From: a virus
Virus record (IMG/VR): IMGVR_UViG_3300030118_005287
Location: 14,774 to 40,625 of that record
Reading direction: 5' to 3' (one strand)
DNA length: 25,852 nt
Below are positions 3,282-23,600 of this stretch, one piece after another. The position numbers and the translations under genes were made by a program. Each line of letters opens with the position of its first letter. The first letter of the stretch is position 1. Below the pieces are notes generated by a model. It was not told the DNA's origin, did not search any database, and saw only the letters and a program-made list of their open reading frames with translations.

Positions 3282-6200
3282 ATGATTTCAACCACTGGAG
3301 GATTAGATACTAGAGTTAATATTCAACAAATAATTGAAAATCAATTACCAGAATTTTTATTATCTGAGAGTCCTAATGCTGTAGAGTTTTTTAAAGCATA
3401 TTACCTCTCTCAAGAACATCAGGGTGGTACAATTGATATTATTGATAATTTAGATCAATATTTAAAATTAGATAATTTAACACCAGAAGTAGTAGGGTCT
3501 GGAACCACACTTTCAATTGGAATTGGAACAGATGATAAGACTATATTTGTTGATTCTACAAAAGGATTTCCTAAACAATTTGGTCTTTTTAAGATTAATG
3601 ATGAAATAATAACTTATTCTGGCATTGGTTCAACTTCATTCACTGGATGTATACGTGGTTTTTGTGGAATAACAACATATAATTCTACCGATAATCCAGG
3701 TCAACTAGTATTTTCAACTTCATCTGCGAGTGTTGGAGTAGCAAATACAACCGTTACTAATTTAAGTTCTTTATTCTTAAAAGAATTTTATAAAAAACAA
3801 AAATTTACATTAACACCTGAATTAGAAAATTCTACTTTTGTACCTTCACTTAATGCTGGTAATTTTATCAAAGAAGCAAGCACTCTTTATCAATCAAAAG
3901 GAACTGAAGAATCTTTTAGAATATTATTCAATGTTTTATATGGAGTAAATCCAAAAATTATTGATTTAGAATCCCTTTTATTAAAACCATCAGCAGCTGA
4001 ATTTATTCGACGTGAAATTCTAGTGTGTCAGTCAATTAGTGGCGATCCTCTTAAACTTAAAGGACAATCTGTTACAAAATCAACGGATTTTTCAACTAGA
4101 GGTGCTGTTTCAGATGTTGAACCATTAACTTCTAAAGAGGGTAATCTATACTATAAAGTAAGTTTATTCGTTGGTTTTAATGATGTTGATTTAATACAAG
4201 GAACATTTACAATACCAGGTAAAACAAAGGTAATTGGAAATATTGGTGTTGGTGCAAGTGTTGTAACCGTAGATTCAACTGTTGGATTTAGTACAGTTGG
4301 AAACTTTATATCTGGTATTAATACTGTCACATACACAGATAAGACTGTAAACCAATTTTTAAATTGTTCTGGAATTACATCTTCAATTTCAACATCATCT
4401 GATATTAGAGCTGATGAGACTATTTTTGGATATGAGGATGGAGATTTGACTAAAAAGGTCGAATTAAGAATTACTGGAGTAATATCTGACTTTAAACCAG
4501 TATCAGATATAGTATTGATAAATGAAGGAGAAGAAATTGGTATTAGAAATTTAGGAGAACAAATATTAAATCCCGAAGTAGATAAAACTAAAAAAGAAAT
4601 TAATAGTAATTCATGGATTTATAATACTGCCTCTCGTTTTCAGATACAGGCACCATATAATGCATCTAATAAATCAACTCCAGTATTACTATCAGATGTT
4701 GACAGATCACAGTTAAAGAAAGGTGATAATATTGAAATATTAATAAGAGGAGAACAAATAACACAGGCAACAGCTATTGTAGATAATATTAGTGATAGAC
4801 AAATTAACTTAGATGAACTAACAGCAGGTTTTGTTCCAAACTCTAATCAACTATACGACATAAGAAGAAAGTTAAAGACTACATCTAGCAGTGAAATTGA
4901 TTTACAATTTGGAAATGATATCTTAACATCAGATATAACAAACATATATGTTGAATCAAATAAAAATATATATGCAGCATCAAATTCATTGCCATCTTAT
5001 GAAATAAATGTTGGAGTTGCTAGAACAAATGCATCAGATGTACAAAATTTTAACAATATCACAAATAAATTTTCTGAAATTTCTTTTAGATTAGATGTAC
5101 CATTTATTACAGGTGATGAAATAATATACAAACCAAGTGGAGATCCAATTCCAGGATTAGAATCAGGATCAAGATATTTTGTAAGAGTTAGACCACCAGT
5201 AGGTAAAGTTAGTAATAAAATTAATCTTTATGTGTCTGCTTCCTTTATTGCTAAAGATTTAGAAGAAGGAACTAATACATTTGTTGAATTTGGTGATCTT
5301 CCAACAGGATCTGGTGCTGGTGATCATAAGTTTATATTATCAAGACATAGTTCCGAAATAATAAAACCTCAAAAATTATTTAAACAGTTTCCAATTAAAC
5401 CAAATATTGAAAATGGTAATGCGATTGAAACATTACCAGGAAAAACTGGCATGTTAATAAATGGTGTTGAAGTAACTAATTACAAATCTTCTGATAGAAT
5501 TTATTTTGGACCATTAACAGAAGTATCAGTTTTTAAAAAAGGTAAGAATTATGATGTAATTAATCCTCCTACAGTTAAAATATCAGATTCTCCCACTGGA
5601 TCAGGAACAACAGCTCTCGCACAACCAGTTATAATTGGAAAAATAGAAGATGTACAAGTAGATCAACAAAATTATGACATAGACAGTGTTGGTTCAATAA
5701 CTGTTAAGGGAGGTAATGGAATTGGAGCTGTTTTACAACCAATTGTTACTCAAAGATTTAGAGAACTAAGTTTTGATGGAAGACAAAAAGTAAACGCTAT
5801 TGTAGGTGGAGTTGATATTGATAATGAAACTATAACTTTTAATACAACTCATAATCTAAATGATGGGCAAGCTTTGGTTTATGATAGTAATGGTAATCCT
5901 CCGATTGGAATTAATACTGGTGGATCAAATCTTGCTAAAGTGGGAATTGATACTAGTCTTCATCATGGGGCGGTATATTTTCCAAAAATTATAGGTATAG
6001 GTAATTCTGTAAAATTATTTTCATCTAAAGCAGACTTCATATCTGGTATTAATACTGTAGGATTTACAACAATTAATACGAGTGGTGTTCATAAATTTAG
6101 ATTAAAAGATGGTAAAAATCATTTACGTTCAGTTAAAGTTTTAAATTCTGGTGAAGGATATGCAAATCGAAAATTACTAGTAAAACCTGTAGGAATATCA

Positions 6201-9200
6201 ACCATTAAAGATACTGTTCATTTTAAAGATCATGGATTTAAAGATAATGAATTAGTTCAATATTCTGTAGAATCTGGAGGAACAGTAATAACAGGTTTAT
6301 CAACTACAAATCAATATCGAATTATTAAAGTTAATGATGATAAATTTAGAATTGCTAACGCTGGTATTGGTGGAACAATAACATCAAATTACGATAGAAA
6401 TAATTATGTAAAATTTGATAGTATTGGTGATGGACATCAAATTTTTGAATACCCACCAGTTCAATTAGTGGTTGATGTCAAATATTCTAAAGTTGCGGTA
6501 GCTCTAACTGAATCTCTTACATTAACACCAATTATAAGAGGAAATATTGAACAAACTTATTTGTATCATGCTGGAACTGGATATGGATCAACGGTTTTAA
6601 ATTTTGAGAAAAAACCTACTATTACTATCAAAACTGGTCAATTAGGAGTATTTAAACCTCTTATTAAAGAAGGAAAATTAATCGCTGTAGATATTGAAAA
6701 TCAAGGTGAAGATTATAATGCTGCTCCAGACCTTCTTATCGAAGGAGATGGATTTGGAGCTTCTGTAAGAGCTATTGTTGAAAGTGGAAAGATTACTGAT
6801 GTTAAGATTCTTAATTCGGGAACAGGATATACACAGGATAAAACTTCAATTTTAGTAACTTCACCTGGTTCTGAAGCATTATTAGAATCAAAAGTTAGAA
6901 TATTAAATGTAAACAATTATAGATTTGCTGAAGAATTAGATTCATCAGATAAATCAGCTATATTATCAGAGGTGGGGTCTAATGGTTTAAGTTATTCATT
7001 TGTTGGTTATTCAGTTGGTATTGGAAAATCATCATTCGGAGATGATGATAGTAGTACACATTCACCTATTATTGGATGGGCATATGATGGAAATCCAATC
7101 TATGGACCTTATGGACACTCTGATCCAATGGATGATAACTCTAGCATTATTCTATTAACACCAGGATATGTTAAAAACGTAGGTATTGTAAGTGATAGAC
7201 CTACAGGATTTAGTGAAGGTTTCTTTATTGAAGATCATTCTTTTAATGGAAGTGGAGATTTGGATGAAAGTAATGGTAGATATTGTAGAACTCCAGATTA
7301 TCCTAATGGTGTATATGCTTATTTTGTAGGAGTTTCTACAAACCTAACAACTGGTAAACTTGAACCAAAATTCCCATACTTTATAGGTGATACTTATCGT
7401 TCAGATCCACCAGAAGAAAATTTCTTAATTAATCAATCCACTTATGATTTTAATAAAAAAACGATAGCAAGAAATACATTCCCATATAAAGTTGCCGATA
7501 AATTTGCTGATAATGATTTTATCGTAGAATCAAATGAGTTAGTGGATCAAATTTCTTTTGTGGATTCTATTTCAAAAGGTGTAGTTGATTCTTTTGATAT
7601 TATTGAATCTGGTTCTGGTTATAAAATTGGTGAGAATGCAAGTTTTGACAATACAGGAACAAATGGTGGTGGATTAACAGCATCTATAAAATCTTTGACG
7701 GGAAAAAATCTTTTAGATATAAACACTAATGTAGAAAATTGGCAGAATGTAGTTTTTACATGGAATAGTCCAAATCAAGTTTCGGGTTATATATCAACCT
7801 CACATTCATTAAAAGAAAAAGATAATATTATCGTTTCTGGGTTATCGACAACGATATCAGGTTTAACTAGAAATCATCAAATTGGTATTACAACATCAGT
7901 TGCTTTTCTTTACAAAGATCTTGGTAATAGTGAGGGAGCAACTGTGGGTGTTGTCACTGACATTTATGTTTCAACAATACCTAGTTTTGTATCTGTAGGA
8001 AGTAGTATAGGAATCGGAACTGAAAAATTAAAGATATTGAATATATTTGATGATCGAAATATTTTAAGAGTTACCAGAGGGGAAAGTGGAGTCGCACATA
8101 CTTTATCAACTCAAGTTAATTATCTTTCTAATTATTTTTCAATTCCAGTAAAAACATCATATTTTGAATCAAGAGTTAATGATATAGTATATTTTAATCC
8201 AAATGAATCTATTGGAGTGGGAACTATTGTTGGTTCTGCCACAACAGTTAATGTTAGTCGAGGCATTTTAACAGTTCCAATATCAGTTGATGCTCAAAGT
8301 ATATTCATTCCAAATCATCCATTTACACAAAATCAACAAGTTTCACTTAATATTCCAACTGGTGGAAATGTACTTTCTATATCAACAATTTCAAATTTAT
8401 CACCACAAGATTTAGGAGTTAGCGGTGGTAGTGTTAATGTTTTCGTTATCAATAAATCTAAAGATTATATTGGATTAACAACTCAAATTGGAATATGTAC
8501 CAACGGTGTTTTCTTTCATGATAATTCATCAAATAAATTTGATTATTTCTTTGAATCTAATTATACTCAAGTAACTGGTAAAATTGAAAAAGTTGTTTCT
8601 ACATTATCAATATCAACTTCAATATCAACTTCTCATGGAATGTTGAATAATGATGTTATATCTTTATCATTAAATCCAAATGAAACTGTTGGTATTGGAA
8701 CTTCAACTGCTGTTAGAGTTAAATTTAATTCAAAAGAACAGAAATTATTGGTCAATCCTGTTACATTTGGAGCATCTAGTGTAAATACAACAACAAATAC
8801 TATTACTATAAGTGACCATAACTTAATTACTGGTCAAAAAATATTTTATGATGGTGGAAATAATCAAATAACAGGACTCTCAACAGGAGTATATTACACT
8901 TATCGTGTTGATGATAATAATTTTAGATTAGGTGAGACTAGAAAGGATGTATTAGAGGATTATCCAATAATAATTAATTTAACAGGCACAGGAGGTACTG
9001 GTCAAGAATTTTCTTTAATTAATCCACCAATATCTGTTATTAGAGATAATAATTTAAAATTTGATCTAAGTGATAGTTCACTTACAGGATATAATTTTAA
9101 ACTATTTTATGATAGTAAATTCAACAATGAATTTGTTTCAACAGGAACTACCACCACTAATTTAATCACTCGAACAGGTACGATTGGTTCTGGAACTGCC

Positions 9201-12200
9201 TCACTTACATTAAATCATAATATTGATACTCCTAATCTCATATATTACACACTAGAAAAATCTGGATTTATTAGTACTTCTGATATTGATGTTAATAATT
9301 TCTCTCAAATTAATTATGAAGAAAGTCCATATAATGGTGAATATAGTATTTCTGGTGTTGGTGTAACAACTTTTGATATTTCACTTAAATCTGTTCCAAA
9401 TTCCTTAAATTATACAACTTCAAATACAAATACACTTAAATATACAACCTTATCCAAAACAGCTACAGGTGGAATTGATAAGATGTTAATATCTTTTGGT
9501 GGAATTGAATATAAAAAATTACCTATATTCACTGGAATTACTTCTACAAATGGAATTAATGCAAACATATCACCAAAATCAAAAACAGCAAATAGAATTA
9601 ATAGTGTCAATATTATTAATCAGGGTTTTGAATATGCTTCTGATCCAACACTTAGACCAGAGGTTCTTATATCTCCAATTATAACAATTAGAGACTCTGG
9701 AACTCTTTCAACTGTTTCAATCATTTCTAGTGGAAAGAATTATATTATACCACCAAAATTAATAGTTGTAGATCCTACTACTAATGAAAGAGTTAATAAT
9801 GGAATGTTGGAGGCTGTATTATCATCAGGTGGTATTGTTGATGTTAAGATCATAGATCCACCAAAAGGTCTTTCTTCTTTAGAGCAAAGAATTGTATCTG
9901 TAGATAATACAAATGGAATAACCATTGATAGTGTGACATATGATTCTGTAAACAATAGAGTTTTATGTACATTAGCAACACCAACGTTAGGGTTTAATCA
10001 AGCACCATTTTTGGCAGGAGATAAAATATTTGTTGAAAATATTTTAAAATCAGGAACTAGTGGAGATGGTTTTAATTCTAATGATCATGGATTTAAATTT
10101 TTTAATGTATTACCAAATACTGAAGGATCACAATTAGATTCTAATCCTGTTGTTGTTGCTTTTAGTTTAGATAATTTCACAAATGATCCTGGAACACCTA
10201 TCACAACTCAAGATGGATATGCGATAATGATTAGGGAATCAGATGTGCCATCTTTTACATCAACTCAAAAGTTAGGGTTTTTCAGAATTGGAGAAAAAAT
10301 TTCAGTTTTAAAAAATAATTCTTTTATTCCAACTGATTTAAAAATAACTAGTAGTTTAGCTAATTCAATTAAAATTTTTGGAAAATTTAGATTGAATGTA
10401 AATGATAGAATTAAAGGTGAAACAACAGGAACAAGAGCTACGATTAATACCTTAATTGAAAATTTAGCAACATTTGATGTTGATTATGCTTTAAGAAAAG
10501 ATACTGGATGGAATGATGATATTGGTAAATTAAGTTCTGATAGTCAAGTACTAGCTGATAATGACTACTATCAAAATCTATCATATGCCGTTCAAAGTCC
10601 ACTTGAATATGAAACTTTAGTTAATTCTGTAAATCGTCTATTACACCCAAGTGGATTAAAGAATTTTGCAAATGTTGGTATAGGATCAACAACTAAAGCA
10701 GGAATTTCAACTGATACTAATGTAACAATGATTAATCAAGATTTGATTACTCATAATAGGGTAGATGAAATTAATATATTCGATAATGCTAAAGATGTAG
10801 ATGTATCATTAAATAGATCAAGATTTTTAGAAATACAAAACAAAAAATTAACTAGTTATATTGAGTGTAAAACTAACAGAGTATTAAAAATTGATGATAT
10901 TAGTTCTGAATTCGCAAGTTCATCAGTTCTTGGTCAAAAAAGTCCTAACATTATTTTAGATGACGAATATAATAATCTTTTAGTTCAAATCATAGACACC
11001 GCCACTAATAATATTCAATCCACTGAGTTAACAATTTTTAGAGATTCTACAGATATATTCACATTAGAAAAAGCTAATGTATCAAATACAAATGATTCAC
11101 TTATAGATGTACGAAGTAAAATTGAAGATAATATATCTATTCTTTCATTATTACCTAAAGTTGTTAACTCTAATTTTGCTATTAAAATTTATGATAGTTC
11201 ATTTAATACATCTTCAATAGGAATATCTACACAATCAGTTGGATTTATTGATTTAGTTGGTGTGACAACTACTGTGGGCATTGGAACTTCTACTAATATT
11301 ATTTCAGTTGATAAAGATAAGTTAGATGCTTACAAAGCAAACTTTGAAATAACTGATAATGTTACTGATGAAAAAAGTATTGTCGATTTATATTTAACAC
11401 ACGATGATACTGATGCTTATAAAGCAGAAGTATTTACAGATACTGGATCACTAGCGTCATTCTCATCTAACTTTATAGGAACATTTCATTCAAATATTAG
11501 TGGTGGAATTTTATCTTTAAATTATGAAAATACAAGCACTAATCAAGTTTCAGTAAGAACTAAAATTGTAGGATTTGGAACAACTGCCTCTGGAATTTCA
11601 ACTTTTAGATTTAAAGATTCTGGTCAAGCTGATGGAACAGAAAGATCTATGAAATTTGAATCTTCATTCCTTAATATTGGAGTTTCAACTGGAGGAACCG
11701 CTTTTGATGCTACTTCACCTGGAGTTTATGTTGGAGATTCTCCATCTGGAATTAGTTCAACAGTTGTTTCAACAATAAAAAGTAATATAAGAGTTTCTAT
11801 TGGTGAAACAAGTGCTATTCACCAATTATTAACTGTTTGGGATGGAAATGATGCGTATACAACTCAATATCCATTTGTTTCCATTGGAACAACCACTGGT
11901 ATTGGTACATTTACATCAAATGTAACAGACGCAATAAGAATACAATTTATTCCAGATGCCCAATGGAATGGACAATCAATTAATATACAAAGATTTGATG
12001 AAATAATTTATACTGATAGTGACAAATTAAATATAGCTCCAGATTTAACTTATGGAGCAATTACTGAATCTTTATCAACATTTGAATTTATATCAGCTGG
12101 TAATCAATTAGATAAAACAGATTTTGATCTAAAACATAATGATATTCCTATTTTTGAAAAAACATTCAATCCTTCTGGGACTGGTATTAACACTACTACT

Positions 12201-15200
12201 GGTTTATTTACAATTACAGATCATTTCTTTAATACTGGTGAAAAATTAATTTACACTCCAACTTCAACATTTACTGGAATTGCTGGAACTGCGATGCAGA
12301 TGTCAAATGGTTCTCCATTACCAACAGAAGTTTTTGCTGTTAGAGAAACTAAAGATACCTTTAAACTAGCGACATCAAGAGCAAATGCATTAGCAACCAC
12401 ACCAACAACAATTACCTTTACAGGACAAAGTGGTGGAAATCTTCATAAACTAGAGATGTTTAAAAAACTTGAAAAGAGTGTAATTCTTATTGATGGTGTA
12501 ATACAATCACCACTATCATTTACACCAACAACTACTACACTACAAAGTAACAATGGAACTGTTGGAATTGGAACAACTATTTTTAATGTTGTTGGATTAT
12601 CTTCTATTGTACCAAATTCAATTTTAAAAATCAATGATGAATACTTAAAAGTTAATTTAGTTGGTATTGGTACAAGTAATTCTGGTCCAATAAGTGGAAT
12701 CGGAACTTATAATCTAGTAACTGCTGAACGTGGATATGTAGGAACATCAACTGCTTCACATAGTGATGGAGATACTGTTAGAGTTTATTCTGGATCATTT
12801 AATATTGTAGGTAGTAAAGTTCATTTTACAGATCCTCCAAAGGGTGCTGCCACAACGTTAAAGAATTCATCTAATCTTGATTTTATAAGATCTTCTTTTG
12901 ATGGAAGGGTTTATTTAAGACAAGATTACACAAATAATAGAATTTTTGATGATATTTCTCAAAGTTTTAATGGCATATCATCATCATTTACAATGAAAGT
13001 TGGTGGAGCAAATACTACTGGTATTGCCACTGGAAGCACTCTTGTTCTTCTAAATGGAATATTTCAACAACCATCAACCTCAAATAATTCAGATCAAGAT
13101 TATAGTTTTATTCAAACTGGTGCTGGACATACTGGAATTACAACTGCTGTCTTTACTGGTATAACAACTGTTAAGTCTGATGGATCTACTGGAACTATAG
13201 TTCAAAATACTTCAGATTCAAACGCAAACAAACTTCCTAGAGGTGGAATAATTGTATCAGTAGCGTCCACGGGTGGAATGGGTGTTGCTCCACTTCAAGG
13301 TGCGATTATAAGACCTTTAATCGGAGCTGGTAAGTCAATTAGTGGATTCATTGGAATTCCAACTACTGGAGCGTCATTAGCAATTAGTACGGCTACGTAT
13401 GACAATGTATCTGGAGAACTACAGATTACAACAGAGACAGATCATAATTTTAGATATCCAAATGAATTTGTACAATTACGTAATTTAGAATTTGCTGGTA
13501 ATATTTCTGGAACTGGCACTAGTACAATATTCCCAGATACAGCTAGTGATAAACCATTTTCTATAATTTCAATAGAATCTAGACATCAATTTACTGCGAG
13601 TGTGGGAGTAGGAACTACTACACACGCATTCTTAGGATCCTTTGGACCTCTTAATAGAACTGGTATTGCCTCAGCTTATTATGCTGATTTAAATGTAGGA
13701 TCTGGATATTTTGCTTCTGGAATTGGTGTCACAGTTTCTGTAGAAGATTTGGAGTTTGAGCATAGATTTGTAAGTTCAGGTATTAATTCAATCACATCTA
13801 ATGTTGGAGGAGCATTCACAGCAACCAATGCTGAGTATGTTTCTTCAACAGGAGTTTTAACATTAACAATTCCTAATCATGGATTAACAACAAGTAATAC
13901 TATTGGAATTGCCACAGGAGGATTGGTCTTTACTTGTTCTAGAGATAATTTTACAACTGTCCATCCATATCCAAGAACCACTGATCCAGCACATAACGCT
14001 AATTTAGCGATAGGTTCTACTTCAATTAATACTATTACAGTTAACGTAGGTCCTGGTGGTGGAGCTGGAACAGGAGCAAATGTGACAGCAGTTGTTGGTG
14101 CTGGTGGAACTTTAACTTTTGATATTACAAGTGGTGGAAGTGGTTATGTAAATCCAGTGATATCAGTATCTCCACCTTCATATGAAAATTTACCAGTGGT
14201 TGGAGTTTCTAGATTAGGAGTTGGTGCTACCACAGAACTTGGAAATGGAACTTTGATTAGTGTTGAAGTTGGATCAGGAACCTCAGTTGGAATTGGAACA
14301 ACTTTAGTTTCAGTAAAATCATTTAAAATTGTTAATCCAGGTTTTGGGTATCAAGTTGGGGACGTATTTAAACCTGTAGGGTTAGTTACATCATCACAAC
14401 TTTCACAATTAGTGAGTGATTTAGAATTTACAGTTACTGAAACATTTACAGATAAATTCTCTTCATGGGATTTTGGAGAATTTGATTATATTGATTCGAT
14501 ATACTCATTACAGGATGGTAAAAGAACAAGATTCCCATTAATATACGAAGGAGAAATTGTAAGTTTTGAAGTAGATAAAAATGATCCACTGTCATCATTA
14601 ATAGAATTAGAACCATTACTTTTAATCTTTGTTAATGGAATTCTTCAAAATCCTGGTGAGTCTTATATATTTGAGGGTGGTACATCTATCGTATTTGCTG
14701 TTCCTCCAACAGTAGATGATAATATTGATATATTTTTCTATAGAGGAACAGTTGGTGTAGATAGTCTTTTAGTATCTGTAAGACAATCTTTAAAGAAGGG
14801 AGATAATGTAAAACTCTTAAAAGGTAATTTTACCAATTCTAAACCATCACAAGATTCAAGAACAATTACAAATTTAGTTCAATCTGATACAATTAAAACA
14901 AACTTATACTTTGGTCAAGGTATTGAACCAAATGTAGGTGGTAAATCCAGACCATTAAAATGGGCAAAACAAAAAGTAAATAAAGTAATTGATGGAGATA
15001 TCGTTTATAAAAATAGAAATCTTTATGAACCTCTCGTCTATCCAACTTCTAAAATCATTGCGGATGTTTCATCTACTGATACTAACATATTTGTTGACAA
15101 TGCTCAATTCTTTGATGAGGATGGACTAATAAGTAATAACAAAACAGATGGTTTAATTATTCCATCTGGTAGTGTGGTAGCAGCTGCGATTACTGCTATT

Positions 15201-16028
15201 GTTTCTGCTGCTGGAACTATAAGTTCACTATCAATTGTAAATGGGGGTCAGGGATATGTTGGATCCTCAACTTCATTGGTTATTGGTATTCCAACAACTG
15301 GAATTGGAGTTGGAGTTGGAACAACAGCAACAGCAACAGCAACAATAACCAATGGTGGTATTACTACAACAACAATTGTAAATCCAGGTTTTGGTTATAC
15401 TTCCGATATTACACCACAGGTTATCGCACCTACACCATTCCTACAAACTGAATTAATTCAAAATATTACAACTGTTGAAGGATTCTCAGGTATTATTACA
15501 GGAATAAGTACAACGAGACCAACATCTACTAAATTAGCGTTAGAATTTTATCTAAGTAAAGATAGTGGAAATTATTCTGATTTATTAGTTGGATATCCTA
15601 TTTACATTTACGATACTACTGTTGGATCGGGTGTAACATCTCTATGGAATAATAACAATAATAATGTTGTAGGTATTGGAACAACTTTCTTAGATAATGT
15701 TTATCGTATCAAAGAAATTAGTTCTGTTGGAACTAGAGGTCTTGTTACTTGCTTTGTACATACAGGTCTTACTACATCAACAATTGGAAATTATAATGCT
15801 GCTGGCATAGCAACTGCAACTCCTGTTGGACTCAATAGTGAAAGTCCAACATCACTTGGTAAATTCAGTTGGGGTCGATTAACTGGAATCACAAGAAGCA
15901 CATTACCAATAGCTATTGGTGTTACTGGATCAACAATTGGGTTGTCCACAGCACTTGGAATAACCACCTTCCCAACCATTCAAAGAAGGGGTGAGGGTTT
16001 AAATGACAGTGGTGCTTTAGACATATAA
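3282..16028 (+). CDS. Giant modular baseplate protein at the gp7 position, with YHYH domain (4,248 aa)
   Basis: This gene fills nearly half of the window and stands where T4 has gp7 (1,032 aa). The N-terminus (1-240) has 'LPEFLLSESPNAVEFFKAYY' and, at 207 on, 'GTEESFRILFNVLYG', a tail-protein motif consistent with a wedge role. Other segments that look conserved in marine T4-like phages, from memory, are about 690-860 (KLFKQFPIKP, NGVEVTNYKS), 2408-2465 (DNDYYQNLSY, LLHPSGLKNFA), 3781-3820 (FVNGILQNPGESYIFEGG then FYRGT) and the C-terminus 'IQRRGEGLNDSGALDI'. Between these lie beta-rich repeats: GxGY motifs, 'HGF..G..V.Y' modules, an RG...H module and a YHYH domain at 1261-1349. There are few cysteines, no signal peptide and no clear coiled coil. 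Intact frame with a Shine-Dalgarno start. Role as gp7 counterpart and peripheral baseplate or host-contact protein is inferred from position and modules. Confidence 0.88.
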   Translation: MISTTGGLDTRVNIQQIIENQLPEFLLSESPNAVEFFKAYYLSQEHQGGTIDIIDNLDQYLKLDNLTPEVVGSGTTLSIGIGTDDKTIFVDSTKGFPKQFGLFKINDEIITYSGIGSTSFTGCIRGFCGITTYNSTDNPGQLVFSTSSASVGVANTTVTNLSSLFLKEFYKKQKFTLTPELENSTFVPSLNAGNFIKEASTLYQSKGTEESFRILFNVLYGVNPKIIDLESLLLKPSAAEFIRREILVCQSISGDPLKLKGQSVTKSTDFSTRGAVSDVEPLTSKEGNLYYKVSLFVGFNDVDLIQGTFTIPGKTKVIGNIGVGASVVTVDSTVGFSTVGNFISGINTVTYTDKTVNQFLNCSGITSSISTSSDIRADETIFGYEDGDLTKKVELRITGVISDFKPVSDIVLINEGEEIGIRNLGEQILNPEVDKTKKEINSNSWIYNTASRFQIQAPYNASNKSTPVLLSDVDRSQLKKGDNIEILIRGEQITQATAIVDNISDRQINLDELTAGFVPNSNQLYDIRRKLKTTSSSEIDLQFGNDILTSDITNIYVESNKNIYAASNSLPSYEINVGVARTNASDVQNFNNITNKFSEISFRLDVPFITGDEIIYKPSGDPIPGLESGSRYFVRVRPPVGKVSNKINLYVSASFIAKDLEEGTNTFVEFGDLPTGSGAGDHKFILSRHSSEIIKPQKLFKQFPIKPNIENGNAIETLPGKTGMLINGVEVTNYKSSDRIYFGPLTEVSVFKKGKNYDVINPPTVKISDSPTGSGTTALAQPVIIGKIEDVQVDQQNYDIDSVGSITVKGGNGIGAVLQPIVTQRFRELSFDGRQKVNAIVGGVDIDNETITFNTTHNLNDGQALVYDSNGNPPIGINTGGSNLAKVGIDTSLHHGAVYFPKIIGIGNSVKLFSSKADFISGINTVGFTTINTSGVHKFRLKDGKNHLRSVKVLNSGEGYANRKLLVKPVGISTIKDTVHFKDHGFKDNELVQYSVESGGTVITGLSTTNQYRIIKVNDDKFRIANAGIGGTITSNYDRNNYVKFDSIGDGHQIFEYPPVQLVVDVKYSKVAVALTESLTLTPIIRGNIEQTYLYHAGTGYGSTVLNFEKKPTITIKTGQLGVFKPLIKEGKLIAVDIENQGEDYNAAPDLLIEGDGFGASVRAIVESGKITDVKILNSGTGYTQDKTSILVTSPGSEALLESKVRILNVNNYRFAEELDSSDKSAILSEVGSNGLSYSFVGYSVGIGKSSFGDDDSSTHSPIIGWAYDGNPIYGPYGHSDPMDDNSSIILLTPGYVKNVGIVSDRPTGFSEGFFIEDHSFNGSGDLDESNGRYCRTPDYPNGVYAYFVGVSTNLTTGKLEPKFPYFIGDTYRSDPPEENFLINQSTYDFNKKTIARNTFPYKVADKFADNDFIVESNELVDQISFVDSISKGVVDSFDIIESGSGYKIGENASFDNTGTNGGGLTASIKSLTGKNLLDINTNVENWQNVVFTWNSPNQVSGYISTSHSLKEKDNIIVSGLSTTISGLTRNHQIGITTSVAFLYKDLGNSEGATVGVVTDIYVSTIPSFVSVGSSIGIGTEKLKILNIFDDRNILRVTRGESGVAHTLSTQVNYLSNYFSIPVKTSYFESRVNDIVYFNPNESIGVGTIVGSATTVNVSRGILTVPISVDAQSIFIPNHPFTQNQQVSLNIPTGGNVLSISTISNLSPQDLGVSGGSVNVFVINKSKDYIGLTTQIGICTNGVFFHDNSSNKFDYFFESNYTQVTGKIEKVVSTLSISTSISTSHGMLNNDVISLSLNPNETVGIGTSTAVRVKFNSKEQKLLVNPVTFGASSVNTTTNTITISDHNLITGQKIFYDGGNNQITGLSTGVYYTYRVDDNNFRLGETRKDVLEDYPIIINLTGTGGTGQEFSLINPPISVIRDNNLKFDLSDSSLTGYNFKLFYDSKFNNEFVSTGTTTTNLITRTGTIGSGTASLTLNHNIDTPNLIYYTLEKSGFISTSDIDVNNFSQINYEESPYNGEYSISGVGVTTFDISLKSVPNSLNYTTSNTNTLKYTTLSKTATGGIDKMLISFGGIEYKKLPIFTGITSTNGINANISPKSKTANRINSVNIINQGFEYASDPTLRPEVLISPIITIRDSGTLSTVSIISSGKNYIIPPKLIVVDPTTNERVNNGMLEAVLSSGGIVDVKIIDPPKGLSSLEQRIVSVDNTNGITIDSVTYDSVNNRVLCTLATPTLGFNQAPFLAGDKIFVENILKSGTSGDGFNSNDHGFKFFNVLPNTEGSQLDSNPVVVAFSLDNFTNDPGTPITTQDGYAIMIRESDVPSFTSTQKLGFFRIGEKISVLKNNSFIPTDLKITSSLANSIKIFGKFRLNVNDRIKGETTGTRATINTLIENLATFDVDYALRKDTGWNDDIGKLSSDSQVLADNDYYQNLSYAVQSPLEYETLVNSVNRLLHPSGLKNFANVGIGSTTKAGISTDTNVTMINQDLITHNRVDEINIFDNAKDVDVSLNRSRFLEIQNKKLTSYIECKTNRVLKIDDISSEFASSSVLGQKSPNIILDDEYNNLLVQIIDTATNNIQSTELTIFRDSTDIFTLEKANVSNTNDSLIDVRSKIEDNISILSLLPKVVNSNFAIKIYDSSFNTSSIGISTQSVGFIDLVGVTTTVGIGTSTNIISVDKDKLDAYKANFEITDNVTDEKSIVDLYLTHDDTDAYKAEVFTDTGSLASFSSNFIGTFHSNISGGILSLNYENTSTNQVSVRTKIVGFGTTASGISTFRFKDSGQADGTERSMKFESSFLNIGVSTGGTAFDATSPGVYVGDSPSGISSTVVSTIKSNIRVSIGETSAIHQLLTVWDGNDAYTTQYPFVSIGTTTGIGTFTSNVTDAIRIQFIPDAQWNGQSINIQRFDEIIYTDSDKLNIAPDLTYGAITESLSTFEFISAGNQLDKTDFDLKHNDIPIFEKTFNPSGTGINTTTGLFTITDHFFNTGEKLIYTPTSTFTGIAGTAMQMSNGSPLPTEVFAVRETKDTFKLATSRANALATTPTTITFTGQSGGNLHKLEMFKKLEKSVILIDGVIQSPLSFTPTTTTLQSNNGTVGIGTTIFNVVGLSSIVPNSILKINDEYLKVNLVGIGTSNSGPISGIGTYNLVTAERGYVGTSTASHSDGDTVRVYSGSFNIVGSKVHFTDPPKGAATTLKNSSNLDFIRSSFDGRVYLRQDYTNNRIFDDISQSFNGISSSFTMKVGGANTTGIATGSTLVLLNGIFQQPSTSNNSDQDYSFIQTGAGHTGITTAVFTGITTVKSDGSTGTIVQNTSDSNANKLPRGGIIVSVASTGGMGVAPLQGAIIRPLIGAGKSISGFIGIPTTGASLAISTATYDNVSGELQITTETDHNFRYPNEFVQLRNLEFAGNISGTGTSTIFPDTASDKPFSIISIESRHQFTASVGVGTTTHAFLGSFGPLNRTGIASAYYADLNVGSGYFASGIGVTVSVEDLEFEHRFVSSGINSITSNVGGAFTATNAEYVSSTGVLTLTIPNHGLTTSNTIGIATGGLVFTCSRDNFTTVHPYPRTTDPAHNANLAIGSTSINTITVNVGPGGGAGTGANVTAVVGAGGTLTFDITSGGSGYVNPVISVSPPSYENLPVVGVSRLGVGATTELGNGTLISVEVGSGTSVGIGTTLVSVKSFKIVNPGFGYQVGDVFKPVGLVTSSQLSQLVSDLEFTVTETFTDKFSSWDFGEFDYIDSIYSLQDGKRTRFPLIYEGEIVSFEVDKNDPLSSLIELEPLLLIFVNGILQNPGESYIFEGGTSIVFAVPPTVDDNIDIFFYRGTVGVDSLLVSVRQSLKKGDNVKLLKGNFTNSKPSQDSRTITNLVQSDTIKTNLYFGQGIEPNVGGKSRPLKWAKQKVNKVIDGDIVYKNRNLYEPLVYPTSKIIADVSSTDTNIFVDNAQFFDEDGLISNNKTDGLIIPSGSVVAAAITAIVSAAGTISSLSIVNGGQGYVGSSTSLVIGIPTTGIGVGVGTTATATATITNGGITTTTIVNPGFGYTSDITPQVIAPTPFLQTELIQNITTVEGFSGIITGISTTRPTSTKLALEFYLSKDSGNYSDLLVGYPIYIYDTTVGSGVTSLWNNNNNNVVGIGTTFLDNVYRIKEISSVGTRGLVTCFVHTGLTTSTIGNYNAAGIATATPVGLNSESPTSLGKFSWGRLTGITRSTLPIAIGVTGSTIGLSTALGITTFPTIQRRGEGLNDSGALDI
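7062..7328 (+). other. YHYH domain within the giant baseplate protein
   Basis: Residues 1261-1349 read 'GWAYDGNPIYGPYGHSDP', then 'FIEDHSFNGSGDLDESNGRY' and 'YPNGVYAYFVG'. The AYDG(N/F)PIYGPYG core and the final NGxYAYF strand are the signature of the YHYH family, which is known from secreted bacterial proteins and phage structural proteins and has no established biochemical activity. The domain sits between GxGY-type beta repeats, and its nucleotide composition does not differ from its surroundings, so any acquisition is old or from a similar genome. Confidence 0.85.
8607..8630 (+). repeat. Tandem 12-nt repeat (2 copies) in the giant gene
   Basis: TCAATATCAACT occurs twice head to tail, giving the peptide SISTSIST just before a 'SHGMLNNDVISLSLNPNE' module. 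It is in frame, so length change by slippage here would keep the gene open. Confidence 0.7.
15325..15342 (+). repeat. CAGCAA hexamer, three tandem copies, in the giant gene
   Basis: Three perfect CAGCAA units encode alternating Thr/Ala (TATATAT) between the GIGVGVGT and ITNGGITTTTIVNPGFGY segments. It is a short in-frame microsatellite in the C-terminal beta region. Confidence 0.65.
15648..15665 (+). repeat. Six-Asn run in the giant gene
   Basis: Five AAT codons and one AAC encode six Asn residues (4123-4128) between 'VTSLW' and 'VVGIGTTF'. It is a likely surface loop; a low-complexity tract rather than a functional motif. Confidence 0.6.
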
Positions 16029-16038
16029 CAATTAATGG

Positions 16039-16046
16039 TATAAATA
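16039..16046 (+). promoter_or_regulatory. T4-type late promoter TATAAATA before gp8
   Basis: An exact TATAAATA followed by TAGAA lies in the 36-nt gap between the giant gene and gp8 and ends 18 nt before the gp8 ATG. It would let gp8 and the DUF4815 gene be made independently of the 15-kb upstream unit. Confidence 0.82.
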
Positions 16047-16064
16047 TAGAAAAAAGCTAATAAT

Positions 16065-17660
16065 ATGGCTGCAATTGTAACAGATCAATTTAGAATTCTA
16101 AATGCTAACAACTTTATAGAAACTGTAGAGAATTCTGCGAATTCTTATTATATCTTTTTAGGTTTAACAGATCCAGGAAGTGGTAAGTATGGAAGAAAAG
16201 CAGATGAAAATACATGGAACACTGACACTCCTGTCCCAGAGGATAGTATTAATGATGTAAATCACATTTCAGATACTATGATCTTTGGTAAAAGAGTCAC
16301 AAGTGATAATATTCGAAGATTAGTTAAAAGAAGGGATTGGGCTGCTGGCACTAGGTATAACATGTATCGTCATGATTATAACTCAGAGAATCCAGCACCA
16401 ATATCAGATGCTCAAAGATTATATGATGCTGATTATTTTGTAATGAATAAAGACTTTAATGTTTATATTTGTATTGATAATGGTTCTTCAGGAATTAATA
16501 CTACTGGAAACGCTTCTCAAGATGAACCAACATTCACTGGATTAGAACCATCTAGAGCTGGTGAAAGTGGAGATGGATATATCTGGAAATTTCTTTTTAG
16601 TGTTTCTCCAAGTGATATTATAAAATTTGACTCAACAGATTTTATTTCTGTTCCTAGTAATTGGTCCACATCAGACAATGCTCAAATTAAAGCAGTTAGA
16701 GAGAATGGCGATTCTACGATTAATGGTAACCAAATTAAAAAAGTATATATTGACAATCAAGGAAATGGATATAAGGATGGTTTAGGACAAGAGGTGAGCA
16801 TTTTAGGTGATGGAACAGGAGCTAGGGTTGTTTTAGATATTGTTGGTAGTAAAATTACAGATGCTGTAGTTTCTTCTGGTGGTAAAGGATATACTTTTGG
16901 AATAGTTGATTTGGGAACATTAAATGGTAGTGTAAATCCTGCTGCAACTGGTGTATTTTCAAAATTAATTCCAATCATACCTCCAGCAAAAGGTCATGGA
17001 TCAGATATATACAAAGAGTTAGGAACTGATAAGGTTTTACTTTATGCGAGATTTGATGACAAAGATAAAGATTTTCCTATCGACACTAAATTTGCTCAAG
17101 TGGGAATTATTAAAAATCCAACATCAATTGGGTCAACTAATGTATACACTGGAAGTTCATTTTCATCTTTAGGAGCAATTAAATTTGTTGATAGTACAAC
17201 ACTTGCTCCAGTAGTAGGTGAGGTTATAAATCAAAAACTTCCTAACGGAAACACTGCATTTGGAATTGTTGCATCATATGATGATGATACAAAAGTTTTG
17301 AAATTCTATCAAGATCGTTCTTTGTATTTTAATCCAACAACAAATGATCAAACAGATCGTGTTGGTGTTTCAACTGCATCAATAGTTTTTGATTTTGATA
17401 ATGATACAACAGGTGGTGCTGTTCCAGCAAACGTAGAGTCTGTAAGTGGATTTACTGGTCAAATTCAAACAACATTTAGTGGAATTACCACAAATCCAAC
17501 TGGAACAAAATTAATTAGTCTAGGGACTGAATTTACTGATGGTCTTTCTGAACCAGAGATAAATAAAGGGTCTGGCGAAATAATTTACTTAGATAATAGG
17601 TCGTTGATATCTCGAAATGCTCGACAAAAAGAAGACGTTAAAATCATCTTGGAATTTTAA
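16065..17660 (+). CDS. 8: Baseplate wedge subunit gp8
   Basis: The 531-aa product opens 'MAAIVTDQFRILNANNFIET', then 'SYYIFLGLTDP', 'YNMYRHDYNSENPAP' and 'NVYICIDNGSSG...QDEPTFTGLEPSRAGESGDGYIWKF', which is the gp8 pattern of T4-like marine phages. The end, 'SGEIIYLDNRSLISR' with 'KIILEF', is also typical. T4 gp8 is 334 aa and binds gp7 and gp10 in the wedge. The extra length here includes two GxGY beta motifs (DNQGNGYKDG near 228 and SSGGKGYTFG near 269) of the type found in the giant upstream protein. It follows its own late promoter and lies 3 nt before the DUF4815 gene. Identity secure; the role of the insertion is unknown. Confidence 0.93.
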   Translation: MAAIVTDQFRILNANNFIETVENSANSYYIFLGLTDPGSGKYGRKADENTWNTDTPVPEDSINDVNHISDTMIFGKRVTSDNIRRLVKRRDWAAGTRYNMYRHDYNSENPAPISDAQRLYDADYFVMNKDFNVYICIDNGSSGINTTGNASQDEPTFTGLEPSRAGESGDGYIWKFLFSVSPSDIIKFDSTDFISVPSNWSTSDNAQIKAVRENGDSTINGNQIKKVYIDNQGNGYKDGLGQEVSILGDGTGARVVLDIVGSKITDAVVSSGGKGYTFGIVDLGTLNGSVNPAATGVFSKLIPIIPPAKGHGSDIYKELGTDKVLLYARFDDKDKDFPIDTKFAQVGIIKNPTSIGSTNVYTGSSFSSLGAIKFVDSTTLAPVVGEVINQKLPNGNTAFGIVASYDDDTKVLKFYQDRSLYFNPTTNDQTDRVGVSTASIVFDFDNDTTGGAVPANVESVSGFTGQIQTTFSGITTNPTGTKLISLGTEFTDGLSEPEINKGSGEIIYLDNRSLISRNARQKEDVKIILEF

Positions 17661-20600: not shown

Positions 20601-23600
20601 GCAAATGATGATGGGGATGTTTATACAGTAGACTCTTATCCACAGGAAAGATTTACGAAAGATATTCCAATTTTACCAAATGGTAAAAGATCTTCTGATG
20701 TTCTTGATTTTAGACCTAGAGTTGCTACTTTTGATGCATCTTCTGCGACAAAATCTCCATTTGGATATGAAAGTAGAAACTTTGAATCTACTCAAAACCC
20801 ACCATTAGTTGTTTCTCCAAATGAAAGTTCATTCGTAGGATACAAATTCTATCTTCCTCGAATTGATAAATTAGTTCTTACAAGTAGAGGTGATTTCTCT
20901 TTAATTAAAGGAATATCTTCTATTGATCCTAAAGAACCAACTGGATCAGATGACTCAATGACAATAGGAACTATAAAATTACCAGCATACCTTTATGATC
21001 CTAAAGATGCTGTGGTGACAACAGTAGATAATAGAAGATATACGATGAGAGATATTGGAAAAATTGAAGATCGTGTAGAAAATTTAGAAACTTTAACTTC
21101 CTTAAGTATTTTAGAGTTAAGTACAAAAACTTTACAGGTTCAAGATTCTAATGGATTTGATAGATTTAAAACTGGATTTTTTGTAGATGATTTTGCTGAT
21201 AATACATTTTTAGATATTTCTGATCCAGATTGTAAGGTTGATGTAGATAGAAATTTACAAGAATTAAACACACCAATTAACTTATATACACTTAAACCAG
21301 AATTAGGGTTAGAACCATCAATTAATACTGATACCGCAGATTTTGCTTCAAATTTAACATTATTAGATTCAAATCTTAAAAAAACTGGTGATTTAATTAC
21401 TCTTGATTATGAAGAAGTTGAATTATTAAATCAACCATTAGCATCTAGAGTAGAAAATGTTAACCCATTTAATATAGTTGTATTTTCAGGTAGAATTACA
21501 TTAAATCCACAATCTGATAACTGGGTAAGAAATATTGTTATTCAAGGAGAAGAAAGAACCGTTTTAGGTGATGCAGAGGGGACAATTGTTAATGAAGTTA
21601 AGATAAGTAGTGTACCAGATACTCATATTCGTTCTCGAAATGTTGCTTTTGACGCACATGGTTTAAAACCATTTACTAGATTTTATTCATTCTTTGATAG
21701 TACAGGTGGAATTGATATTATTCCAAAACTATTAGAAATTAATATGACAAGTGGTGTATTTACTAAAGGAGAAACAGTTGATGTTTTTGCTGGAAGTTTA
21801 CAGTTAGCATCTTTTAGAATTTGTCAACCAAATCATAAATCTGGAGATACAAACACACCAACTACAATATACACTGCTAACCCATATGATAGAGATGTAA
21901 CAATACAAACAGCATATTCTGCTTCTTCAACTATTTTAAATATTGATATTGATTCTTTAGCAGAAGAAGCACAAGGAAGATTTTCTGGATTTGTGAGAAC
22001 TGGTAATGATGTTGTTATTGTTGGAAAAACAAGTAACGCTCAAGCATCTGTATCCTCTGGAAGTGGAATAAGATTAGTTTCTGATGTATTTGGAGATGTT
22101 AAAGGATCATTCTTCTTTAGAAATCCATTAGAAGATCCAGTTCCTCCTTTAAGATTTACAAATGGAAGTAAAACATTTAGACTTACTTCAAGTTCAAATA
22201 ATTCAATATCTGGATTAGGTGAAGTGTCAATTACCTCTGCCGAAGCTGTATATACGACCAGTGGAGTAGTTGACACATTTGAGCAATCAACAACTGTTGT
22301 TCGCACACCACCACCCCCTCCAATACCAGTAATAATTAATAATACTTTTGTTACACAAGAAATAACTGAAATTACAAATGTAACTAATAATATTACAAAT
22401 ATAACCAATAATATTACAAATGTAACTCATGTAGAAAATGACGACCCATTAGCACAAACTTTTATAATTGATGAAACTGGTGCTTTCCTTACATCGATGG
22501 ATTTATATTTTAAGAAAAAAGATCCTCAAGAAAAATTAGATATTCAGATTAGAACAACTGAATTGGGAACACCAACAAGCCTCTTAGTTCAAGATTATGC
22601 TGAGATAACTTTAGAACCATCACAAATTAAAGTTTCTGATGATGCTTCAATACCAACTAGAGTAAATTTCCCATCTCCAATTTATTTACAGGAAGGGGAA
22701 ACATTCGCTGTAGTTCTTCTAGCTCCAACAACAAATAATTATGAAGCTTGGATATCTAGAATGGGAGAAATTAACATTTCTGCTAACGCTTTACCAGATA
22801 CTGAAAACGTTGTAATTTCAAAACAGTATCTTGGAGGAAGTTTATTTAAATCTCAAAACGGTAGTATTTGGACAGCAAATCAATTTGAAGATTTAAAATT
22901 TACTTTATATAAAGCTAAATTTGTAGAATCTGGAACATTAACTTTATTCAATCCAAAATTAGGTACAAACAGCAATCTTTTACCAAGATTACTTCCAAAT
23001 TCAATTAAGACACTACCAAGAAAATTAAAAGTTGGTATTACAACTATCACAGATAATCCTATAAAATCTAATTTCACTCCTGGTGTCAAAGTCAGTGATT
23101 CAGCAACTGCTGGTGCTGTCAATGGTATTATAGAGCAAATTGGTGGACCAATTACTGTTAGTGCTAGTGGTATTACACTAACCTCATCAGGAACAGGATA
23201 TGCGAATGGAACTTATCTTGTTGACTTATTCCCAATTACAGGAAATGGTAGTAGAGCTAGATGTCAAATAACAGTTAGTGCTGCTGGAGCTGTCACTGCT
23301 GCGACAATGAATGTTTCTAATACAATCGCTGGAGAAGGATATGTAGAGGGTGATTTGCTAGGAATTACCACAAGCAGCACAAGTAGCGGGAAGGGATCTG
23401 AAGCAACTATTACAGTAAATTCTGTTAGTGGACTCGATACTCTTTATCTAACAAATTCTCAAGGAAGACAATTTACAGATGGAGAAGATCTTCATTTTTA
23501 TATTGGAGAAACTGCAGTTGGATTAGCTAATACTGATATTAGAGGAGACTCTACAGTTATAAGTGAATTATTCTCAGGTAATGTAATTGAAATTGAGCAT

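What the first reader, a model, noticed from the sequence alone, without database searches (positions are those of the whole stretch)
6149..16900. The same GxGY beta motif recurs within and between neighbouring baseplate genes
Seen in the giant: NSGEGYANRK, HAGTGYGS, NQGEDYNAAP, NSGTGYTQDK, ESGSGYKIGE, NQGFEYASDP, SSGKNYIIPP, SGGSGYVNPV, NPGFGYQVGD, NGGQGYVGSS, NPGFGYTSDI. Seen in gp8: DNQGNGYKDG and SSGGKGYTFG. The DUF4815 protein has SSGTGYANGTY near base 23184. The usual setting is a (I/V)xI-x-(N/S)-x-G-x-G-Y turn, then a strand and often 'GxGA/GxGS', giving a 'strand - GxGY turn - strand' unit. Three adjacent wedge proteins sharing one unit suggests module spread inside the gene cluster and perhaps co-folding or stacking.
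Basis: partly seen in the sequence, partly recalled or inferred. Interest (0 to 1): 0.7.

Follow-up and report, generated by a model that had tools for sequence, protein, structure and literature searches.

The report
Recurring plug-in domain in phage tails
A short two-part protein building block, marked by the letters G-x-G-Y, is plugged into many different parts of the tails of ocean cyanophages and of some unrelated phages, where it most likely sticks out as a small all-beta docking surface.

Summary
All 14 motifs exist, and a profile of the unit separates real proteins from shuffled and reversed ones. The flanks carry signal with the motif left out.

The interpretation needs changing. The unit is not special to three neighbouring wedge genes. 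In cyanophages it also lies in gp14 (neck), gp5 (hub lysozyme) and a fibre-like protein; elsewhere in tail sheaths of small myophages and of Menderavirus and in a lambda-like tail tube. Most window units match best the same slot in another phage (11 of 14), so copies are old and inherited, not spreading now.

The commonest form is a pair of units (35 of 49 runs), about 80 residues, inserted into unrelated folds. No Pfam or NCBIfam model matched it. The best PDB match is the protruding Ig-like D3* domain of the marine tailspike Dpo31 (E 1.2e-4). T4 sheath gp18 domain I, a protruding six-stranded barrel, is a likely but unproven relative; a published mutation of its motif glycine inhibits fibre retraction. 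Most likely: a reusable beta decoration domain used as a docking surface. Fold in gp7 and function are inferred.

The parts
3282..16028 (+). giant baseplate wedge protein, annotated gp7 in Kyanoviridae (4248 aa)
   Evidence: phrog_2885 over residues 7-4236, E 0; synteny gp25-gp6-gp7-gp8 with P-SSM2
5508..5750 (+). GxGY pair in gp7 (residues 743-823), not in the finding
   Evidence: pair profile E 3.6e-11
6120..6209 (+). GxGY unit in gp7 (residues 947-976)
   Evidence: unit profile 19.3 bits
6543..6659 (+). GxGY unit, first of a tandem trio in gp7 (residues 1088-1126)
   Evidence: 23.7 bits
6675..6785 (+). GxGY unit, second of the trio (residues 1132-1168)
   Evidence: 24.7 bits; pair profile over 6672-6905, E 1.2e-25, but this pair was in the profile
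6789..6896 (+). GxGY unit, third of the trio (residues 1170-1205)
   Evidence: 31.9 bits
7581..7694 (+). GxGY unit in gp7 after the YHYH domain (residues 1434-1471)
   Evidence: 27.4 bits
9594..9662 (+). GxGY unit, first of a pair (residues 2105-2127)
   Evidence: 17.9 bits
9702..9815 (+). GxGY unit, second of the pair (residues 2141-2178)
   Evidence: 30.7 bits
14106..14183 (+). GxGY unit in gp7 (residues 3609-3634)
   Evidence: 13.6 bits
14313..14411 (+). GxGY unit in gp7 (residues 3678-3710)
   Evidence: 23.6 bits
15216..15329 (+). GxGY unit, first of a pair (residues 3979-4016)
   Evidence: 16.4 bits
15357..15473 (+). GxGY unit, second of the pair (residues 4026-4064)
   Evidence: 31.6 bits
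16065..17660 (+). gp8, baseplate wedge (531 aa)
   Evidence: Pfam Phage-Gp8 E 1.6e-15; phrog_438
16728..16841 (+). GxGY unit 1 of the gp8 pair (residues 222-259)
   Evidence: 34.8 bits; in the alignment the pair lies where T4 gp8 has only about residues 214-234
16851..16958 (+). GxGY unit 2 of the gp8 pair (residues 263-298)
   Evidence: 22.2 bits
17664..24941 (+). DUF4815 / VrlC protein (2425 aa)
   Evidence: Pfam DUF4815 E 3.6e-57
23169..23273 (+). GxGY unit in DUF4815 (residues 1836-1870)
   Evidence: 25.6 bits; segment matches the gp8 profile phrog_438 at E 0.0011; the pair profile did not find it at E 0.01
23328..23399 (+). weak second GxGY unit in DUF4815
   Evidence: 4.4 bits with a profile trained on gp7 units only

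Best explanation
The GxGY units are halves of a small all-beta accessory domain that phages insert into otherwise unrelated tail and neck proteins. One unit is strand A, GxGY turn, strand B, GxG(A) turn, strand C (about 38 residues). Two units in tandem make the commonest form, about 80 residues and six strands. In the window it sits in gp7 as singles, pairs and a trio, in gp8 as an insert where T4 gp8 has only a short link, and as one or two degenerate units in DUF4815/VrlC. Its best solved relative is the D3* domain of the tailspike Dpo31; T4 gp18 domain I is probably another. It most likely protrudes from the tail and offers loops (the GxGY turn among them) as a docking surface for other virion parts or for host surface sugars. 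SHOWN: the shared unit, its wide distribution, its insertion in different parents, the match to Dpo31. LIKELY: relation to gp18 domain I. INFERRED: same fold in gp7 and DUF4815, protrusion, docking function.
For: Unit real. Wide distribution: P-SSM2 gp7, gp8, gp14, gp5 and a fibre-like protein; tail sheath of PT1, Arya, FoX2 and Persinger (4 of 4 examined); lambda-like tube; Menderavirus sheath and two wedge proteins; 10 of 14 phage records searched whole have it at E <= 0.001. Insertion: the PT1 sheath carries the pair (residues 150-224) between Gp18_domIII_N (31-92) and Phage_sheath_1 (227-363); its residue 228 aligns with residue 136 of the 386-aa pyocin sheath, which is 89 residues shorter overall. 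The gp8 pair faces a gap in T4 gp8. Pair as unit: 35 of 49 runs of two or more are exactly two. Fold: PDB-wide profile search has Dpo31 first of 177,635 sequences, E 1.2e-4, residues 446-505, inside D3* (434-536), which protrudes and is Ig-like (PMC13317679, passages). gp18 domain I: profile-profile P 3.4e-5, probability 72. Strand pattern A-B-C in the confident parts of two models. Function: T4 gp18 domain I protrudes, binds the baseplate and retracted fibres, and G106S, S175F, A178V inhibit fibre retraction (PMC3004832, passages); G106 is the first Gly of GSNY once the initiator Met is discounted.
Against: The gp7 model is poor overall (mean pLDDT 42.6) and the gp8 model middling (58.6); only the unit regions are fair, and no coordinates could be compared. 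Runs of three and five occur (7 of 49), including the window trio, and 52 units stand alone, which a strict pair domain does not explain. gp18 evidence is mixed: rank 3 at E 0.49 with profile A4, absent at E <= 10 with the larger A6; T4 has no match at E <= 0.001; the second motif Tyr of T4 is lost in most gp18 relatives examined. Dpo31's paper calls D3* Ig-like, the T4 review calls domain I a six-stranded barrel; whether these are one fold is untested. No binding assay for any GxGY domain was seen; sugar binding of D3* is only suggested by weak DALI matches.
Confidence: 0.68

Rival explanations
1. The units stack into one open-ended beta-solenoid or beta-prism inside gp7, each GxGY turn being one coil.
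For: Regular spacing near 38-44 residues and runs of up to 8 in S-RIM50 gp7 and 6 in P-HM2 gp7b; odd runs exist.
Against: Two units suffice in gp8, sheath, tube and Dpo31 D3*; 35 of 49 runs are exactly two; D3*, the best solved relative, is described as Ig-like.
Confidence: 0.2
2. The module has been spreading recently between neighbouring wedge genes of this phage by duplication or recombination.
For: The same unit is in three adjacent genes.
Against: 14 of 14 window units have their best match in another phage and 11 of 14 at the same slot; identities to other window units among the best five matches are at most about 40% (other phages also supply more candidates). Units also lie in distant genes and unrelated phages.
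Confidence: 0.07
3. No common ancestry: short Gly-rich beta turns arising repeatedly in fast-evolving tail proteins.
For: With the motif masked, a gp7-trained profile finds nothing in whole proteins; identity between units is often near 30%.
Against: Anchored flanks without the motif separate sites with p = 1.6e-9, 160 test against 271 control sites, the top ones nearly all known units; two-unit order, the second GxGA turn and PHROG cross-matches are shared.
Confidence: 0.12

Closest known systems
D3* domain of Dpo31, tailspike of marine podovirus Carin-1 (PDB 28lx, 28mg, 8ck1)
   Same: Two GxGY units at residues 446-505 and on, E 1.2e-4 in a PDB-wide profile search; inserted (434-536) into another fold; protrudes (PMC13317679, passages).
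   Different: Sits in a beta-helix depolymerase of a podovirus, not in a baseplate wedge. The passages seen do not mention a GxGY repeat or relatives in other phages.
T4 gp18 sheath protein domain I (Pfam PF22639)
   Same: Insert of about 90 residues with a conserved GSNY, following strands and a GKI-type second start; six-stranded barrel, protruding (PMC3004832, passages).
   Different: Second motif degenerate, an extra helix; statistical link moderate; window proteins do not match PF22639.
Ig-like decoration domains of phage structural proteins
   Same: Optional, exchangeable, beta-rich additional domains on sheath proteins (PMC9230969, passages); that they also decorate tube and head proteins is recalled.
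   Different: No Ig family model of Pfam or NCBIfam matches the window proteins or the pair-bearing proteins tested.

Membership tests
Dpo31 D3*-type insert domain | sequence similarity over two tandem units | tested here: met
   E 1.2e-4, best of 177,635 PDB sequences; next best match E 0.75
Dpo31 D3*-type insert domain | inserted in a host fold | tested here: met
   gp8 pair faces a gap of T4 gp8; sheath pair between sheath domains
Dpo31 D3*-type insert domain | Ig-like three-dimensional fold | not testable with these tools
   no coordinates; models of low overall confidence
Dpo31 D3*-type insert domain | protrudes from the particle | not testable with these tools
   no solved structure matches gp7 beyond chance; for gp8 only T4-type gp8 chains matched, over residues 3-197, before the insert
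T4 gp18 domain I (PF22639) | profile similarity to gp18 domain I | tested here: inconclusive
   profile-profile probability 37-72, P 3.6e-4 to 3.4e-5, 0 of 200 column shuffles reach the score; rank 3 at E 0.49 but absent at E <= 10 with the larger profile
T4 gp18 domain I (PF22639) | Pfam PF22639 cut-off reached by window proteins | tested here: not met
   no PF22639 match up to E 1 for gp7, gp8, DUF4815
T4 gp18 domain I (PF22639) | six strands | tested here: inconclusive
   predicted A-B-C repeated in the confident parts of gp8 and gp7 models
Known Ig families (Pfam, NCBIfam) | match to any such model | tested here: not met
Beta-solenoid or beta-prism repeat | open-ended coil of identical units | tested here: inconclusive
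   runs of 2 dominate, runs of 3 to 8 exist

The most novel reading that the evidence does not exclude
GxGY pairs, T4 gp18 domain I and Dpo31 D3* are one unnamed domain superfamily that tailed phages plug into nearly every exterior tail part (sheath, tube, wedge, hub, neck, spike), and the GxGY turn is a common docking site for fibres and other tail parts, as the T4 G106S phenotype hints. Giant cyanophage gp7 proteins would then be long chains of such docking domains.
Probability: 0.33. Interest if true: 0.65.

Novelty: new variant of a known kind. Interest (0 to 1): 0.5.

Why it matters
Giant structural proteins of marine cyanophages are mostly unannotated. A named domain with a solved relative would annotate parts of gp7, gp8, gp14, gp5, VrlC and fibre proteins at once, and would link them to T4 gp18 domain I, for which mutants in fibre retraction already exist. 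It also gives a second family, beside Ig-like domains, of exchangeable beta decorations on phage tails.

Tried and rejected
Single-unit profile against the PDB: nothing significant (FlgG and an antibody at E 0.3-0.5). A hybrid two-unit probe against the PDB: only E >= 0.11, Dscam first. A two-unit peptide from the PT1 sheath: no match up to E 10.

Foldseek of the gp8 model: T4-type gp8 only. I first read its weak matches to V/F-ATPase beta-barrels as the GxGY part; the residue ranges showed that such barrels match gp8 residues 364-497, so this was dropped. For the gp7 model the unit region has only Z about 3 to T-cell-receptor and ATPase chains, which means nothing. gp18 is not among the rows shown; this is no evidence against it.

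BFVD search of the gp7 model returned cyanophage wedge proteins and other phage proteins; one match (a YHYH-domain protein, 75 columns, rmsd 1.1) may cover the unit region, but no residue range is given and the model is weak.

I took the short matches (28-31 residues) of 16 of 28 records for sheaths that lack the pair. Reading three of them showed that all three carry it, so that reading was wrong and was dropped.

Masking the motif and scanning whole proteins lost all signal; only the anchored flank test shows the flanks. The even/odd test of run lengths is equivocal above two: 7 even and 7 odd of 14.

Paper search for the unit's letters or 'GxGY motif' gave one unrelated paper. Other paper searches. 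No paper naming this repeat was seen, but these searches cover only the open library.
Full report
WHAT IS THERE. The window is a tail-gene cluster of a T4-like cyanophage (Kyanoviridae by its relatives): gp25, gp6, a 4248-aa gp7, gp8, DUF4815/VrlC. The nearest annotated relative by gp8 in the phage collection is Prochlorococcus phage P-SSM2, 60%, with the same gene order. The window lies in a 40.6-kb IMG/VR record.

THE OBSERVATION. All 14 peptides are present. The strict motif occurs 11 times in gp7 against a mean of 0.21 in 500 shuffles (maximum 3), twice in gp8 against 0.03, once in DUF4815 against 0.10. An iterated 38-column profile gave 31 hits of at least 6 bits in real ORFs, none in shuffled or reversed ones. 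Of these, 15 are in P-SSM2 proteins, 15 in the window (one of them spurious, on a minus-strand frame), and 1 in T4 gp18.

IS IT MORE THAN THE MOTIF? A profile trained only on the 11 gp7 units of the window was run on 49 non-gp7 proteins of nine phages: 16 hits of at least 8 bits against 0.05 per shuffled set. With GxGY masked it found none. I then scored only the flanks (11 positions before, 9 after) at motif-like sites: 160 sites in non-gp7 tail and neck proteins score above 271 sites in other P-SSM2 and T4 ORFs (Mann-Whitney p = 1.6e-9), and the top of the list is made almost wholly of known units. Most of the 160 sites are ordinary (28.75% exceed the 95th percentile of the controls), as expected for so loose a pattern.

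WHERE ELSE. In P-SSM2, read over its whole record, the unit is in gp7 (6), gp14 (3), gp8 (2), gp5 (2) and a tail-fibre-like protein, PSSM2_293 (2). In 60 chosen proteins of nine phages: 108 units. The gp7 trio region matches 421 phage records, mostly of cyanophages; the 60 rows shown are annotated gp7, baseplate wedge, structural or hypothetical proteins, where they are annotated. Outside cyanophages: sheath of Salmonella phage PT1 and of Arya, FoX2 and Persinger, 4 of 4 read; lambda-like tail tube of Pseudomonas phage PseuP_224; sheath and two wedge proteins of Stenotrophomonas phage Marzo. A pair profile (A6, 57 rows) matched 10 of 14 phage records searched whole at E <= 0.001; the four without are T4, Det7, Campylobacter F360 and Vibrio K566. 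All ten positives had contributed rows to A6, so the tally shows extent, not independent discovery. PHROG profiles of gp8, gp14, gp5, gp7 and fibres are cross-matched by the pair. No Pfam or NCBIfam model matches it.

INHERITANCE. For each of the 14 window units the best match among the 107 other units was in another phage, and for 11 of 14 at the position to which BLAST maps the same slot. The exceptions are 2115, 3619 and the DUF4815 unit. There are more candidates in other phages than in the window, so the 14 of 14 alone means little; the slot agreement is the stronger point. This argues for old slots inherited vertically.

DOMAIN. Of 49 runs of two or more units, 35 are pairs, 6 triplets, 5 of four, and one each of five, six and eight; 52 units stand alone. 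Sheath, tube and most gp8 proteins carry pairs; gp14 carries four in 3 of the 5 cyanophage gp14 proteins in this set (P-SSM2, S-T4, S-SRM01), three in ACG-2014f and a pair plus singles in P-HM2. The gp8 pair faces a gap in T4 gp8 around residues 214-234. In the PT1 sheath the pair lies between sheath domains, and PT1 residue 228 aligns with residue 136 of the 386-aa pyocin sheath. The gp8 model (mean pLDDT 58.6) has pLDDT 73-88 over most of the first unit and a half, with strands 226-231, 239-248, 254-260, 263-271, 279-281, 300-304. The gp7 model is poor (42.6) except in two patches, one being the trio, with strands 199-207, 217-221, 228-234, 237-245, 256-260 in model numbering (add 933). Both read A, GxGY, B, GxG, C, then A, GxGY, B.

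SOLVED RELATIVES. With 23 pairs the PDB search gave Dpo31 first (E 0.018) and T4 gp18 third (E 0.49, residues 102-169). With 57 pairs Dpo31 rose to E 1.2e-4 and gp18 fell out of the list up to E 10. Dpo31's D3* is an insert at 434-536, protruding, Ig-like, with weak DALI similarity to sugar-binding domains (PMC13317679, passages). gp18 relatives share a GSNYAVGD core (one has GANY). Profile comparison of gp18 domain I with the pair gives probability 37-72, P 3.6e-4 to 3.4e-5, and none of 200 column shuffles reaches the real score. I chose gp18 after seeing a borderline hit, so these P values are optimistic. T4 domain I is a six-stranded barrel plus helix, protrudes, takes no part in subunit contacts, binds the baseplate and retracted fibres; G106S, S175F and A178V inhibit fibre retraction (PMC3004832, passages). 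In the translated gene, residue 107 is G, 176 S and 179 A, whereas 106 is P and 178 L, so the published numbers appear to drop the first Met, and G106 is then the first glycine of GSNY.

HOW IT MOST LIKELY WORKS. Shown: a shared unit, mostly paired, in many tail and neck proteins, with a match to one solved protruding domain. Inferred: in gp7, gp8 and DUF4815 the pairs also protrude and act as docking surface for fibres or other tail parts, or for host sugars. S-PM2 evolving with Synechococcus acquired early mutations in gp8 and fibre genes (PMC9910659, passages); whether any lies in the GxGY pair was not examined.

VERDICT. It is not a private feature of this gene cluster but part of a wider family of tail inserts that has no name in the libraries searched. 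The kind (exchangeable beta decoration) is known; this sequence family and its links were not found described in the searches made.

Noticed in passing
window 6195-6461 (gp7 residues 972-1060) and similar stretches elsewhere in gp7: A second module, 'HGF..GE...Y...GL....Y.V..VDD..F', aligns in the model with the FCCH half-domain of ubiquitin E1 (Z 5.1, 61 residues, 21% identity) and with a domain of phage endosialidases (Z 3.9); a profile of it gave endosialidase first in the PDB but only at E 0.37.
   Followed up: partly
window 3580-3631 and 23767-23818: A third module ('KIN.EII.Y.GIGS') is shared by gp7 and DUF4815; the DNA is 75% identical over 52 bases.
   Followed up: no
window 7047-7349 (gp7 residues 1256-1356): YHYH domain (Pfam E 4.9e-23) lies between GxGY units; PMC7824862 (passages) predicts a metal-dependent tail hydrolase.
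   Followed up: no
L118, L114, L115, window, L116, L082, L081, L117: gp7 length varies from 3032 aa (S-CAM1) to 6405 aa (S-RIM50); P-HM2 and S-RIM50 have a second gp7-like gene.
   Followed up: no
L082:15001-16563: gp8 of Synechococcus phage S-T4 is annotated 330 bases short at its start; the frame is open from 15001 and aligns to residue 1 of gp8.
   Followed up: partly
L147:2380-3891: The protein between gp6-like and gp8-like wedge proteins in Stenotrophomonas phage Marzo has only 503 aa, yet carries GxGY units.
   Followed up: partly
window 3282-24941: Naming conflict: records call the giant gp7, whereas PMC7029224 (passages) says T4 gp7 is absent from these phages and replaced by VrlC.
   Followed up: no
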